From Sediminispirochaeta bajacaliforniensis DSM 16054 (GTDB lineage Bacteria; Spirochaetota; Spirochaetia; DSM-16054; Sediminispirochaetaceae): a stretch of DNA of 64,000 bases. The translations under genes were made by a program, and so were the position numbers. This document shows, piece by piece, positions 22,483 to 27,079 of this stretch (the first letter of the stretch is position 1; each line of letters opens with the position of its first letter). The stretch covers positions 1-64,000 of the forward strand of contig NZ_KB899421.1 in assembly GCF_000378205.1 (NCBI RefSeq), given 5' to 3'. The notes beneath the pieces are model-generated. The model saw only the letters and a list, made by a program, of their open reading frames with translations, made no database searches and was not told where the DNA came from.

Positions 22483-24099
22483 TTACTGCCCCGTAGGTTT
22501 CGCCGCAATGACCGGACGAAATCCGAGAAAGGGGGTACACCATTGCGGTTCCTGACTAGCCTTTTCATATATAGAAACGAGATCGCTTCGATTGGCCCAG
22601 CTACCGCCTCTCACAACACGCTCGGCCCCCTTCCAGCCCTTCGGAAGATCAAGTGTTACTCCCGACGCCTGGTAGAGCCGGTCGAGGGGAAGATACCAGT
22701 TGGCTGTCCACTCCCAAAGATTGCCTTCAAGATCCGCGATCCCCAATTTCCCCTGTCGCTCAAAACGTGCAGGTAGAACCTGCGCTTCCGTATCGGCAAA
22801 TACGGCCCTCGGGGTTCCGTTTCGCAAAGCGGCAAGTTCCCATTCCGTCTCACTGGGGAGTCGAACCTCCCAGCTATCACGCATGGAAGCGGGAAGTGTA
22901 TCTTCCAGCCATTGACAAAATGCCTGGGCGGCAAACCAGCTTACCCCCGAAAGGGGGGTATCATCGGGCAGATCGGAGAATCTTCCTCTCGCAGCCCAGT
23001 CCGAAAGGTACTCCTCGTCCACCGCTCCTGAGGCCATAAGATTATCACGCTTCTCCGGTGTCCATTCGGGATGCTCACGCAAAAAGGCACGATAGTCTCC
23101 AACGGTGACCTCTCGTGCGGCCATGTAAAAGCCAGATACCGAAGCCTTGATGGGAAGGCTATCACGAGCGGCCCGATCAAAGGGAAGGGTGGGACCGGTC
23201 ATCGAGGGATCACCTGCCATGAAGCTTCCTCCGGAGACAGACGCGAAACGGATTCCGCCGAGGTTCAGGCTTGAAGGTTCGGGCCGAGGTTCATCACGAA
23301 GGATTGTTCCTCCGGCGCGCTTCATGTCGGAATAATTCACCCTCACGGCCTCAGGTTTTTCCGCCTTTCCGAAGGAAAGTTCCAGCAGTCCAGGATCAAC
23401 TCCCGTAGCTTCGGCCGCCTCTTTTATTAAGACAGAAAGGCCTTCACGTTCTGAAGCAAATTCGATTCCATCATGTTTTTTCAGAAGGATAAAGGCGTAA
23501 TAAAAATCATGGAGTATCGTTTCATTGCTAATATTGGGTGTGAGCTTGTATAACATATCATACAAGTCCTCGGTCGAGAACGTACCGATTTTTACCATAT
23601 CGGAAAAAACAGGGGTAATGAGCGGAGGGGCCTGGTAATTTTCGCGATAGGTGTCGATAAGGGCGTAGCCTGAAAGCTGGGAGAAAAGATCGGCAAAAAC
23701 TTCATCGCTGTCAACTACGCGATATTGTATCTCATAGTGTGATTTTTTCGGGGCAAAAAGAGAAGCAAAGAGCCGGCCTCCGGTTATCAAGTCCTGTTCG
23801 TCAAACTGATATCCCTTCTTTTTCAAGATCAGGCTATGCGATCCTTTCTTGATGAAATCCGTAAGGGGAGTAGCACCTATATAACGGCCATCCAGCAAAA
23901 CCGCGGCACCAGGAGGGAGCGAATCAATGGTAACCTTTTCACCGGGATTTTTTATACCGGGAAGGAGGAGCAGTACAAAGAGTAGTGCGATTACAACCAA
24001 CGCGTAGATCACCGAAAGATATACACCAGGACGGATCCCGAATACCTTTGGCAGTTTTACTTCCACCGGCTTCTCATCCGGCCCTTTTTCACCTTTCAT
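22483..24099 (-). CDS. Membrane protein with PEGA domain and FGE-like (SUMF1) domain
   Basis: A 538-residue protein. It has a short cytoplasmic N-terminus, one membrane segment (about 28-50), a PEGA domain (about 55-110: VTIDSLPPGAAVLLDGRYIG, TPL, KKGYQ), a helical middle part, and a C-terminal formylglycine-generating-enzyme-like domain (about 285-535: REVTVGDYRAF, GVSWFAAQAFCQWLE, RLPSETEWELAAL, LEGNLWEW, VVRGGSWANRSD, LGFRPV). Whether it oxidises a sulfatase cysteine is doubtful; many bacterial members of this fold are binding or structural modules. I start it at ATG 24099. There is no Shine-Dalgarno, and a TTGACA/TACTCT promoter places the transcript start on the ATG, so the message may be leaderless. 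Confidence 0.87.
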   Translation of the reverse strand: MKGEKGPDEKPVEVKLPKVFGIRPGVYLSVIYALVVIALLFVLLLLPGIKNPGEKVTIDSLPPGAAVLLDGRYIGATPLTDFIKKGSHSLILKKKGYQFDEQDLITGGRLFASLFAPKKSHYEIQYRVVDSDEVFADLFSQLSGYALIDTYRENYQAPPLITPVFSDMVKIGTFSTEDLYDMLYKLTPNISNETILHDFYYAFILLKKHDGIEFASEREGLSVLIKEAAEATGVDPGLLELSFGKAEKPEAVRVNYSDMKRAGGTILRDEPRPEPSSLNLGGIRFASVSGGSFMAGDPSMTGPTLPFDRAARDSLPIKASVSGFYMAAREVTVGDYRAFLREHPEWTPEKRDNLMASGAVDEEYLSDWAARGRFSDLPDDTPLSGVSWFAAQAFCQWLEDTLPASMRDSWEVRLPSETEWELAALRNGTPRAVFADTEAQVLPARFERQGKLGIADLEGNLWEWTANWYLPLDRLYQASGVTLDLPKGWKGAERVVRGGSWANRSDLVSIYEKASQEPQWCTPFLGFRPVIAAKPTGQ

Positions 24100-24105
24100 G
24101 GCACA

Positions 24106-24156
24106 AGAGTATCTGTCGACTGTGAGCTTGTCAACGATGCTCTGTTGTGGTAGGTT
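24106..24156. promoter_or_regulatory. Overlapping divergent promoters, both apparently leaderless
   Basis: Minus strand: TTGACA (24129-24134), 17-bp spacer, TACTCT (24106-24111), with ATG 24099 seven bases further. Plus strand: TTGTCA (24128-24133), 17-bp spacer, TAGGTT (24151-24156), with ATG 24164 eight bases further. The -35 boxes share the same bases, so polymerase can serve only one direction at a time. The plus-strand -10 is weak. Confidence 0.42.
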
Positions 24157-24163
24157 GCTGTTT

Positions 24164-25138
24164 ATGGAACGATGGATCGATTCGGTTGAACGCACGACGG
24201 AACGTTATTTGACCTGGAGAAAACGAAGGCATCTTGCACGACAGGCCAAACAGGCAAAAAAAAATGTTATAGTCGACTGGATCGAGGCCTTTTTATGGGC
24301 CGCCATGGTTGTCTTGTTGATTAACCAGTATCTTTTTCAGGCCTATCAAATCCCCTCCGGTTCAATGATCGATACCTTGTTGATCAAAGATCGTATCTTT
24401 GTCAATAAGCTTATTTATGGACCGGAATTAGTTCCCGGGACCGCTAAGCTTTCCAGTCCTATTAAACCGAAGCGAAACGAAGTTATTATTTTCGAAAACC
24501 CCAGTTACCTTTCCAAGGGTAGTGTATTCGATGTTTTTCAACGTATCATTTATATGTTGACATTTTCTCTTGTCGATATCGATAGCGATCCCAGCGGTGC
24601 ACCTCGTCCTCATTTTCTCATCAAACGTGCCGTTGGCGTCGAGGGGGATCGCATCACCGTTGACCGCGGAGAGGTGTACATAAAACCGAAAGGTTTATCT
24701 TCTTACCTTCCGGAGAAAGAGTTTCGCACGCTTGCCGGTTATGACGATCCCACCCGTAGAATGATTGCAGCCGATGACTACCCGGCGATCGAAGCCTCCG
24801 CCATGCAGGAAGCCTACGGTCTTATCGGCTTGGCGGCTCCTGCTTCACTCTCGCAGCGGGTGGATGGCGGCCCTGCTACCACCACCGATATGTTCCAGCA
24901 GATGAAAGCTCGCCTAAGGGTTCTCTACCAGGCTTATCCCGGGGAATCCCGCTATGGAGAAGCCTGGAGGCAGCAGGAAACCGGATGGTATATTCCAAAG
25001 GGGTGGATTTTCCCCATGGGTGATAATCGTGACAACTCAAGGGATGCCCGCTATTTTGGGCCTGTATCGTTGAAAAAAGTGTTGGGTCGGGCAATGTTCA
25101 AGTATTGGCCCTTGGGAAGGATCGGAGCCATTCGGTGA
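24164..25138 (+). CDS. lepB: Signal peptidase I, active form
   Basis: A 324-residue type I signal peptidase with one membrane anchor (about 36-58). Catalytic Ser67 lies in IPSGSM and the general base Lys154 in IKRAVGVEGD; the C-terminal box GDNRDNSRDAR is intact. It cleaves signal peptides of exported proteins at the outer face of the inner membrane. The region between the two catalytic residues and the last box is longer than in E. coli-like enzymes, with an insert rich in Ala/Gln (about 195-270). I chose ATG 24164. The stop overlaps a GTG of the next gene, a paralogue. Confidence 0.92.
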   Translation: MERWIDSVERTTERYLTWRKRRHLARQAKQAKKNVIVDWIEAFLWAAMVVLLINQYLFQAYQIPSGSMIDTLLIKDRIFVNKLIYGPELVPGTAKLSSPIKPKRNEVIIFENPSYLSKGSVFDVFQRIIYMLTFSLVDIDSDPSGAPRPHFLIKRAVGVEGDRITVDRGEVYIKPKGLSSYLPEKEFRTLAGYDDPTRRMIAADDYPAIEASAMQEAYGLIGLAAPASLSQRVDGGPATTTDMFQQMKARLRVLYQAYPGESRYGEAWRQQETGWYIPKGWIFPMGDNRDNSRDARYFGPVSLKKVLGRAMFKYWPLGRIGAIR

Positions 25139-25143
25139 TCGGA

Positions 25144-25896
25144 ATGAGTAAACGTTCTGCTGCTTTGCGTTATTACCGAAGTTATCGTCCGGAAAGTAAA
25201 CTTCGAAAAGCGATCAGACGTATCATTCGTTTTCTTCTTCTCCTTTTTATTGCGAAAATAATCCTCACGTCGTTTTTACTTTCTTCGTATGTTGTACGGA
25301 CAGAGGCCATGGAGCCCTCATTGAAAAAAGGAGAACGAGTACTTGCCACGCCCCTTTTATATGGTGGTTTTATTCCCTTTACGTCAATGCGTTTCCCTGA
25401 ACTTCGGCTACCGAACTACGGTGAAATGGTGCTTTATCAGACACCTGTTTCGGAAACCAATCCATGGTGGATCAATATTATCTCGGAGCTATGGTTTTTT
25501 ATAACGGGAGAACAGAGTCACAGACTGCCTTTCTCGGAAGATCCCGTCGATGCCCGACTTGCCATTGGACGAATCATTGCCAGGCCTGGCGATACGGTAA
25601 AAATTGATCATGGTATCATCATGGTAAAAAAGAAAGGTGAAAGCAATTTTTTTGAAGAACATACGGCAATTCGAAAAGAATATCGGACACAACATCAGCT
25701 TCTTCCCGAAGGCTGGGATCGGAACTTACCGTTCTCCAATGAAATGGATGCTCGTACACTGGGTGATGAGGATTTTTTCATTGTAAATGACAATCGAACG
25801 ATTTTTTCCGACAGCAGATTGTGGGGGGTACAAAAGGCTCCCCTGATTCAGGCAAAGGTGCTGTTTTCATATTGGCCGCGCTTCTCCCTTCATTAA
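25144..25896 (+). CDS. Signal peptidase I paralogue lacking both catalytic residues
   Basis: A 250-residue protein with the S26A architecture: membrane anchor (about 26-48), then VVRTEAMEPSLKKGERVL aligning with the IPSGSMxPTL box, IGRIIARPGDTVKI aligning with the KRvvGlpGD box, and NDNRTIFSDSRLWG aligning with GDNRxxSxDSR. The nucleophile Ser is Ala55 and the general-base Lys is Gly142, so peptidase activity is not expected. The rest of the fold is well kept, which argues for a selected function rather than decay. It follows lepB immediately, suggesting a partner or regulator of the active enzyme; that is inference. Confidence 0.85.
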   Translation: MSKRSAALRYYRSYRPESKLRKAIRRIIRFLLLLFIAKIILTSFLLSSYVVRTEAMEPSLKKGERVLATPLLYGGFIPFTSMRFPELRLPNYGEMVLYQTPVSETNPWWINIISELWFFITGEQSHRLPFSEDPVDARLAIGRIIARPGDTVKIDHGIIMVKKKGESNFFEEHTAIRKEYRTQHQLLPEGWDRNLPFSNEMDARTLGDEDFFIVNDNRTIFSDSRLWGVQKAPLIQAKVLFSYWPRFSLH

Positions 25897-25900
25897 AGCA

Positions 25901-27079
25901 ATGAATCTTTCCGTTAACGATCTTTCCTTATATATCCACGTTCCTTTTTGCTTCGATAAGTGTGACTATTGTGATTTTTTCAGTATTCCCCATCACGGTC
26001 GGCCTGATAACCGGTTGCTTGAGAGGGAGTTCCGTCTGATAGAAGCCATGGGCTCCAGATGGCTTCGCCGATTACAGTGCAGGAGCCTAGAAACCATCTA
26101 TATCGGCGGAGGCACACCCTCATCGATAGGATTGGATCGTCTTGAAAGGCTTTTGAGTATCATTGCAAACCTCATAAAAAAAGAGGGGATTGCCTTCGAA
26201 GGTGAGTATACCATGGAAGCCAATCCAAGAGATATTTCCGACGATCTCATTGAGCTTTTGGAAAGCTACAAGATCAACCGTCTCAGTCTCGGCCTCCAGT
26301 CGCTCAATGACCGGGACCTTAGGGCCATAGGCAGAAGCGGAAGCAGGGCGCAATCCTTAAACGCCCTTAGCGTGCTTTCCTCCCGCTGGAAGGGACGCTT
26401 TTCCCTTGATATCATTGCGGGTATTCCGGGCCAGAAAAGCGAAAGCATCGATGAGATCGTCGAAACAGCGGTCGAATCTGGAGCCGATCACCTTTCTATC
26501 TACCAACTCACCATTGAAGAGGGGACTCCTCTTGCAAGAAAGATAGCCCAGGGGCTTCGTCGTGCGCCGCAGGATGAAGATTATCTTCGTCTCTTTAAGC
26601 ACGCCGTCGAAACAGCCGAAAAAACGGGTTTTAAACGATATGAGGTTTCGGCATTTGCACGCAAGGGTTGTGAAAGCAAGCATAATCTACGCTATTGGTA
26701 TCTGCGCCCCTATCTTGGGCTTGGAAGCGGCGCGGTATCGACCCTGCCGCTTGCTGACGGGAGGGCTCTGCGTTTTTGTACCGGAAAGGGGCGTTATATG
26801 AAAGAAATTCTTTCGCATAGACAACGCTTTACCGAAGCTCTCATGACAGGCTTTCGTCTGGTAGCAGGTGTTGATGAAAGCATGATTTCCGGCACTGGAA
26901 TTCCCGACCATCCTTTTCGACTCATCAGAAAGACCATTACCGATTACCGGAAGCGCGGACTTTTGTTCATGAAAAACGGAAGGATGGGACTTACACATCA
27001 GGGGCTCGACCTTTTAGACCGTTTTCTTCTTGATTGCCTTGTAGAACTTGATATCACCTGGCCCGAGAATCGATCTTGA
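25901..27079 (+). CDS. hemW: HemW-type radical SAM protein (heme chaperone)
   Basis: A 392-residue radical SAM protein with the cluster motif CFDKCDYC (CxxxCxxC) near residue 17, IYIGGGTPS, the GLQSLNDRDL block and, near residue 260, HNLRYW, the HNxxYW heme-binding signature that separates HemW from the coproporphyrinogen dehydrogenase HemN. Older annotation calls these oxygen-independent coproporphyrinogen oxidase. The start ATG lies 4 bp behind the peptidase paralogue. The -35 box of the next operon overlaps its stop. Confidence 0.9.
   Translation: MNLSVNDLSLYIHVPFCFDKCDYCDFFSIPHHGRPDNRLLEREFRLIEAMGSRWLRRLQCRSLETIYIGGGTPSSIGLDRLERLLSIIANLIKKEGIAFEGEYTMEANPRDISDDLIELLESYKINRLSLGLQSLNDRDLRAIGRSGSRAQSLNALSVLSSRWKGRFSLDIIAGIPGQKSESIDEIVETAVESGADHLSIYQLTIEEGTPLARKIAQGLRRAPQDEDYLRLFKHAVETAEKTGFKRYEVSAFARKGCESKHNLRYWYLRPYLGLGSGAVSTLPLADGRALRFCTGKGRYMKEILSHRQRFTEALMTGFRLVAGVDESMISGTGIPDHPFRLIRKTITDYRKRGLLFMKNGRMGLTHQGLDLLDRFLLDCLVELDITWPENRS

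What the first reader, a model, noticed from the sequence alone, without database searches (positions are those of the whole stretch)
25144..25896. Catalytically dead signal peptidase I paralogue paired with the active enzyme
The gene directly behind lepB keeps all S26A boxes, but the nucleophile Ser is Ala55 and the general base Lys is Gly142. Both losses together, with the fold, anchor and NDNR/SDSR box kept, suggest a pseudoenzyme under selection, perhaps a substrate-presenting or regulatory subunit of the active peptidase.
Basis: partly seen in the sequence, partly recalled or inferred. Interest (0 to 1): 0.62.

Follow-up and report, generated by a model that had tools for sequence, protein, structure and literature searches.

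The report
Dead signal peptidase conserved in spirochaetes
Next to the enzyme that cuts export signals off secreted proteins, spirochaetes carry a second, look-alike protein whose cutting machinery has been lost again and again while the protein itself is kept, which suggests it handles exported proteins without cutting them.

Summary
ORF 25144-25896 (250 aa, "SpsP" here) is a membrane-anchored signal peptidase I homologue directly behind the intact lepB. Ser is Ala55 and Lys is Gly142; two further active-site positions are also gone (E. coli Gly272 to Asn215, Ser278 to Phe221). The gene is under purifying selection (dN/dS about 0.11 against its sister species).

Positional orthologues sit just upstream of hemW/yebC/ruvCAB in 19 families of the class. 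Among 79 members Ser survives in 41, Lys in 33, both in 19, and both plus Gly272 in only 7. All 71 LepB-type copies keep them. Scaffold residues and the hydrophobic S1/S3 peptide cleft are retained. Parsimony needs at least 12 changes of dyad state. In Treponema-type genomes the adjacent lepB is gone and the degenerate copy stayed.

Best reading: a peptide-binding, non-cutting signal-peptidase fold working alongside whichever active enzyme is present, comparable to S. pyogenes SipA. An obligate complex with the neighbouring LepB is untested and weakened by the lepB losses. Dead homologues are known (S. aureus SpsA, S. pyogenes SipA), so this is a new variant of a known kind. NCBI's model would label it an active enzyme.

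The parts
25144..25896 (+). spsP (name used here): degenerate signal peptidase I paralogue, 250 aa, one N-terminal transmembrane helix and a periplasmic S26 domain
   Evidence: translation; PF10502 66 bits; TIGR02227 75.8 bits; AlphaFold pLDDT 85.5, pTM 0.80
25306..25308 (+). codon GCC, Ala55, at the nucleophile Ser position (E. coli Ser90)
   Evidence: alignments; Ser in 71/71 LepB-type rows, 41/79 SpsP rows
25567..25569 (+). codon GGA, Gly142, at the general-base Lys position (E. coli Lys145)
   Evidence: alignments; Lys in 71/71 LepB-type rows, 33/79 SpsP rows
25786..25788 (+). codon AAT, Asn215, at E. coli Gly272, which must lack a side chain for the catalytic Lys to fit; S. pyogenes SipA also has Asn here
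   Evidence: role from PMC4049620 section 8
25804..25806 (+). codon TTT, Phe221, at E. coli Ser278, which stabilises the catalytic Lys
   Evidence: Ser in 71/71 LepB-type rows, 10/79 SpsP rows; role from PMC4049620
25213..25278 (+). predicted transmembrane part (about residues 24-45) of the N-terminal helix 3-45; N-terminus in the cytoplasm, by analogy with the family
   Evidence: secondary structure of model; topology inferred
24164..25138 (+). lepB: active-type signal peptidase I (324 aa, Ser/Lys, Gly272 and Ser278 equivalents intact), stop codon 5 nt before spsP
25901..27079 (+). hemW-like radical SAM gene (HemN/HemW family), 4 nt after spsP; the conserved downstream neighbour used as positional anchor
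   Evidence: Pfam; synteny
22483..24195 (-). FGE-sulfatase + PEGA domain gene on the opposite strand, upstream of lepB; absent together with lepB from the smpB-spsP interval in Treponema-type genomes
   Evidence: Pfam; synteny

Best explanation
SpsP is a signal-peptidase pseudoenzyme. Shown by sequence: a membrane-anchored S26 fold, a dismantled active site in the window protein, purifying selection, and positional orthologues across the class in which the Ser/Lys dyad was lost many times. Inferred: the retained hydrophobic S1/S3 cleft still binds the Ala-X-Ala region of signal peptides, or a similar extended segment, as an exported protein leaves the Sec channel. SpsP holds or sorts it without cutting, and a separate active signal peptidase (adjacent LepB, or the long LepB in Treponema-type genomes) does the cleavage. 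Whether SpsP hands substrates to LepB, shields some from it, or serves a subset of envelope proteins is not resolved. A stable complex with the neighbouring LepB is possible but not required.
For: Four conserved chemistry positions (Ser90, Lys145, Gly272 and Ser278 equivalents) are lost in the window protein; they are intact in 71/71 LepB-type rows and in 28/28 other S26 rows. Scaffold positions survive in 79 SpsP rows: Met56 76, Arg143 76, Gly149 78, Asp216 75, Arg218 74, Asp223 77, Arg225 72. Peptide-cleft positions, mapped from the SpsB-peptide structures (PMC4704075), stay hydrophobic in 70-79 of 79 rows, against a median of 27% hydrophobic rows per column. SpsP is one clan, SH-aLRT 99, with active-site columns masked. 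dN/dS is 0.11, against lepB 0.08 and hemW 0.09. Synteny with hemW/yebC/ruvCAB is conserved. The AlphaFold model matches SipA best when normalised by target length (TMt 0.73), and all 22 hits at E<=0.001 are signal peptidases or SipA. In SipA the residue at the Ser position is dispensable while the cleft is conserved (PMC4049620).
Against: No substrate, binding or interaction data exist. 19 of 79 orthologues keep both Ser and Lys, and 7 of these also Gly272, so some members may still cut. Attempts to show peptide binding by SipA itself failed in vitro (PMC4049620). SpsP is missing from two families (f10, f12) that still have LepB, so it is not needed for signal-peptide cleavage as such.
Confidence: 0.55

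Rival explanations
1. Obligate regulatory or substrate-presenting subunit of the adjacent LepB: the two form a hetero-oligomeric signal peptidase, a bacterial parallel to multi-subunit eukaryotic signal peptidase complexes.
For: Tandem with 5 nt spacing in the window. LepB and SpsP are adjacent in 42 genomes of the tree set. SpsP always co-occurs with a Ser/Lys LepB-type enzyme in the genomes checked.
Against: In Treponema-type genomes and some members of f4, f11, f13 and f19 the adjacent lepB is missing while spsP stays, so the partner would have to be exchangeable for the long LepB. The mirror-tree correlation (0.70) is not corrected for shared species history and proves nothing.
Confidence: 0.2
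2. Independent SipA-like assembly factor: SpsP binds a particular envelope protein (not a signal peptide) and helps its assembly, unrelated to signal-peptide cleavage.
For: SipA precedent with the same Lys-to-Gly and Gly272-to-Asn exchanges. Retention of SpsP where the neighbouring lepB is missing. Fast evolution, 2.7 times LepB, fits a changing client.
Against: No client is linked to it; neighbours are housekeeping genes. A flagellar sheath link (FlaA) failed: f10 has FlaA without SpsP, and genus g13 of f9 has SpsP without FlaA.
Confidence: 0.17
3. Still a protease that uses other residues (a migrated active site), or that is active in the Ser/Lys-bearing lineages only.
For: 19 of 79 rows keep Ser and Lys, 7 also Gly272, 3 also Ser/Thr at 221. 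An ancestral active enzyme is likely, since LepB, long LepB and other S26 rows are all Ser/Lys.
Against: No new polar position is fixed in SpsP that could replace the dyad; the one invariant Ser (Ser224) is the ordinary DSR Ser of many S26 proteins. Replacements differ between lineages (Ala, Thr, Gly, Val, Asp, Glu, Asn, Gln, Ile for Ser; Arg, Gly, Ala, Val, Leu, Tyr, Phe, Ser for Lys).
Confidence: 0.06
4. Decaying duplicate (pseudogene in the making) kept by operon position.
For: Catalytic residues lost; faster evolution than LepB.
Against: dN/dS 0.11. Intact frame in the rows used. Scaffold residues conserved in over 90% of 79 orthologues. Retained where lepB itself is missing.
Confidence: 0.02

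Closest known systems
Streptococcus pyogenes SipA / LepA (PDB 4n31, 4k8w)
   Same: S26 fold with dead site: Ser90 to Asp, Lys145 to Gly, Gly272 to Asn, Ser278 to Arg; peptide cleft kept (PMC4049620). The window protein has Ala, Gly, Asn, Phe at the same positions. Best structural match by target-normalised TM (0.73).
   Different: SipA lies in a pilus operon and works with a class B sortase in a Gram-positive. SpsP lies in a lepB-hemW-yebC-ruvCAB housekeeping cluster in spirochaetes, with no sortase or pilin nearby, and has its own conserved segment (Glu172, Tyr180, Trp191).
Staphylococcus aureus SpsA (inactive) with SpsB
   Same: An inactive signal peptidase I homologue in a genome with an essential active one; SpsA lacks the catalytic residues and is dispensable (PMC12445088; PMC2721850). 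The tandem arrangement of spsA-spsB is from memory.
   Different: Not shown to be orthologous; function of SpsA unknown. SpsP spans a whole class, shows repeated losses, and is retained where the active neighbour is missing.
Bacterial signal peptidase I LepB (E. coli; window lepB)
   Same: Same fold, N-terminal anchor, boxes and peptide cleft; passes the TIGR02227 equivalog cut-off.
   Different: Catalytic dyad and its supporting residues absent.

Membership tests
Peptidase S26 / signal peptidase I fold | Profile match over the whole domain | tested here: met
   PF10502 66 bits, residues 25-244 on profile 2-168 of 168
Peptidase S26 / signal peptidase I fold | Fold of the periplasmic domain | tested here: met
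   AlphaFold pTM 0.80; the 22 PDB hits with E <= 0.001 are all signal peptidases or SipA
Active signal peptidase I | Ser nucleophile in box B | tested here: not met
   Ala55
Active signal peptidase I | Lys general base in box D | tested here: not met
   Gly142
Active signal peptidase I | Gly272 and Ser278 equivalents supporting the Lys | tested here: not met
   Asn215 and Phe221
Active signal peptidase I | Cleaves pre-proteins | not testable with these tools
   needs an enzyme assay
SipA-type dead signal peptidase | Dead dyad with retained S1/S3 peptide cleft | tested here: met
   cleft positions 49, 51, 56, 60, 141 hydrophobic in 70-79 of 79 rows; window Y, V, M, L, I
SipA-type dead signal peptidase | Located in a sortase-pilin operon and needed for pilus polymerisation | tested here: not met
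   neighbours are lepB, hemW, yebC, ruvC; the pilus role itself was not testable
S. aureus SpsA | Inactive copy accompanying an active signal peptidase | tested here: met
   lepB 24164-25138 is Ser/Lys; spsP follows after 5 nt
S. aureus SpsA | Common descent with SpsA | not tested
   SpsA was not included in the trees

The most novel reading that the evidence does not exclude
Spirochaetes carry a conserved non-catalytic partner of signal peptidase: a class-wide heteromeric signal peptidase, or a signal-peptide chaperone working with it. Freedom from catalysis was reached independently a dozen or more times, including in Treponema- and Borrelia-type genomes, where such copies would be annotated as active signal peptidase I.
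Probability: 0.35. Interest if true: 0.78.

Novelty: new variant of a known kind. Interest (0 to 1): 0.56.

Why it matters
Bacterial signal peptidase I is thought of as a lone enzyme. A conserved dead paralogue across a class that includes Treponema- and Borrelia-type genomes points to an uncharted step in spirochaete protein export, in an envelope with many Sec-exported surface and periplasmic proteins. It also corrects annotation: all 40 family members scanned match NCBI's signal peptidase I equivalog model, and the dead window protein scores well above its cut-off, so catalogues will list it as an active enzyme. The mix of intact, half-lost and fully lost active sites in one orthologous series is a good natural series for asking how an enzyme becomes a pseudoenzyme.

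Tried and rejected
Flagellar link: SpsP is missing from f12, whose 14 genomes have no FlaA (PF04620), which suggested FlaA as client. But f10 has FlaA without SpsP, and g13 of f9 has SpsP without FlaA, so I dropped it.

Pseudogene decay: rejected by dN/dS and conservation.

Migrated catalytic residue: no fixed new candidate.

Lys142-Gly215 covariation within SpsP: not significant (Fisher p = 0.26).

A profile scan of named genomes with 40 diverse members failed for lack of a conserved stretch. The narrower one gave spirochaetal orthologues down to about E 1e-16, then mostly generic signal peptidases of other phyla.

Literature: no paper found on these genes beyond a table naming BB0031 'LepB signal peptidase I' (PMC3757035). 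Terms for TP0185 gave nothing.

The second structure job was not used, since no tool here models complexes or compares two models.

Full report
OBSERVATION. The ORF at 25144-25896 (+) is real: 250 aa, ATG start, 5 nt after the lepB stop and 4 nt before the hemW start. It is a signal peptidase I homologue by Pfam (66 bits) and by NCBI's equivalog model TIGR02227 (75.8 bits, cut-off 47). In alignments with lepB and orthologues, Ala55 stands on the Ser nucleophile and Gly142 on the Lys base, with ungapped anchors on both sides. The same-genus genome G371, 95% identical, has the same pair.

MORE OF THE ACTIVE SITE IS GONE THAN REPORTED. E. coli Gly272 cannot bear a side chain beside the catalytic Lys, and Ser278 stabilises that Lys (PMC4049620). 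In the window protein these are Asn215 and Phe221. S. pyogenes SipA, a solved dead homologue, has Asp, Gly, Asn, Arg at the Ser90, Lys145, Gly272 and Ser278 positions. The window protein has Ala, Gly, Asn, Phe. The Lys-to-Gly and Gly-to-Asn exchanges are the same.

FAMILY. A search of 393 genomes of the phylum, followed by reading 178 S26 domains in detail, gave 79 members of the window gene's group from 19 families, 45 LepB of the window type, 26 of a longer LepB type and 28 other S26 proteins. With active-site columns masked the 79 form one clan, SH-aLRT 99 (quick ML tree, so deep order inside is unsure). They are also positional orthologues: nearly all lie directly before hemW or yebC, with smpB upstream on the other strand.

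RECURRENT LOSS. Ser/Lys is intact in 71/71 LepB-type rows and 28/28 other rows. In the SpsP group Ser is kept in 41/79, Lys in 33/79, both in 19/79, and both plus Gly272 in 7/79. There are 24 dyad combinations counting the intact one, for example Ala/Gly, Thr/Arg, Ser/Arg, Thr/Lys, Ala/Lys, Gly/Lys, Asp/Ala, Glu/Ala. Parsimony needs 12 changes of dyad state; irreversible loss needs 20. Five families (f4, f8, f9, f11, f19) hold both intact and broken members, so several losses do not depend on the deep tree. Treponema-type genomes (f3, 23 rows) all lost the Lys, mostly to Arg. The one whose length (1,139,633 bp) suggests T. pallidum, from memory, has Ser/Arg. Three small genomes that look like Borreliaceae (f5, inferred from size and gene order) have Asp/Ala, Glu/Ala, Glu/Ser.

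STILL UNDER SELECTION. dN/dS between the two sister species is 0.111 for spsP, 0.076 for lepB and 0.088 for hemW (NG86). Across 79 rows the scaffold residues Met56, Arg143, Gly149, Asp150, Asp216, Arg218, Asp223 and Ser224 stand at 94-100%, Arg225 at 91%. SpsP evolves about 2.7 times faster than LepB in the same genomes. The S1/S3 peptide-contact positions known from SpsB-peptide structures (PMC4704075) remain hydrophobic in 70-79 of 79 rows; one further S3 position (SpsB Asp74) is not conserved. SpsP also has conserved residues of its own that LepB-type rows share only partly: Tyr180 (72/79), Trp191, and an N-terminal Ser-Tyr at 13-14 on the presumed cytoplasmic side.

STRUCTURE. AlphaFold with 27 orthologues gives pLDDT 85.5, pTM 0.80, a long N-terminal helix (3-45) and the S26 beta fold. 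All 22 PDB hits at E<=0.001 are signal peptidases or SipA. By target-normalised TM the best is SipA, 0.73. Coordinates could not be inspected, so the residue mapping rests on sequence anchors.

THE NEIGHBOUR CAN BE LOST. In f3 and in some members of f4, f11, f13 and f19, smpB lies directly upstream of spsP: lepB and the FGE/PEGA gene between them are missing, spsP stays. In each of the 19 such genomes examined a longer LepB-type protein (open frames of about 480-700 aa, Ser/Lys) is encoded elsewhere. SpsP is therefore not tied to the adjacent LepB, though in the genomes checked it always occurs with some active-type LepB. LepB occurs without SpsP in f10 and f12, so SpsP is not essential for cleavage as such.

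MECHANISM. Shown: dead active site in the window protein, kept fold and cleft, selection, recurrent loss, co-occurrence with an active-type enzyme. Inferred: SpsP binds signal-peptide or similar extended segments emerging from the Sec channel and holds or sorts them without cutting. Not shown: any ligand, any partner, any phenotype.

NOVELTY. Dead signal peptidase homologues are known: S. aureus SpsA beside SpsB (PMC12445088, PMC2721850) and S. pyogenes SipA (PMC4049620). A class-wide spirochaetal family with repeated dyad loss, kept where its active neighbour is missing, was not found in the literature searched here, which holds only open-licence papers. I rate it a new variant of a known kind.

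Noticed in passing
L133:1409-3244 (-), and similar in L134-L149, L162, L164: A long LepB form (open frames about 480-700 aa, Ser/Lys intact) with a large stretch between boxes D and E replaces the ordinary LepB in Treponema-type genomes and some other families; Pfam splits it into two stretches.
   Followed up: partly
G000:C30:15044-15409 (locus L003): The window's genome has a third S26 protein (open frame 146 aa, Ser/Lys intact) far from this cluster; similar short Ser/Lys copies occur in other families.
   Followed up: no
window 22483-24195 (-): A PEGA + formylglycine-generating-enzyme-like protein sits beside lepB in tandem-bearing genomes and is absent together with lepB from the smpB-spsP interval in Treponema-type genomes.
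   Followed up: partly
G149, G238 (family f9, genus g13): Small genomes (1.5-1.7 Mb) with no FlaA match although they belong to the class; their SpsP keeps Ser/Lys.
   Followed up: no
family f12 genomes (G226, G281, G358, G386 and others): 13 of 14 genomes searched have a single S26 gene (LepB) and one shows none; SpsP is absent in all 14, as is FlaA; genome sizes suggest Sphaerochaetaceae (inferred).
   Followed up: partly
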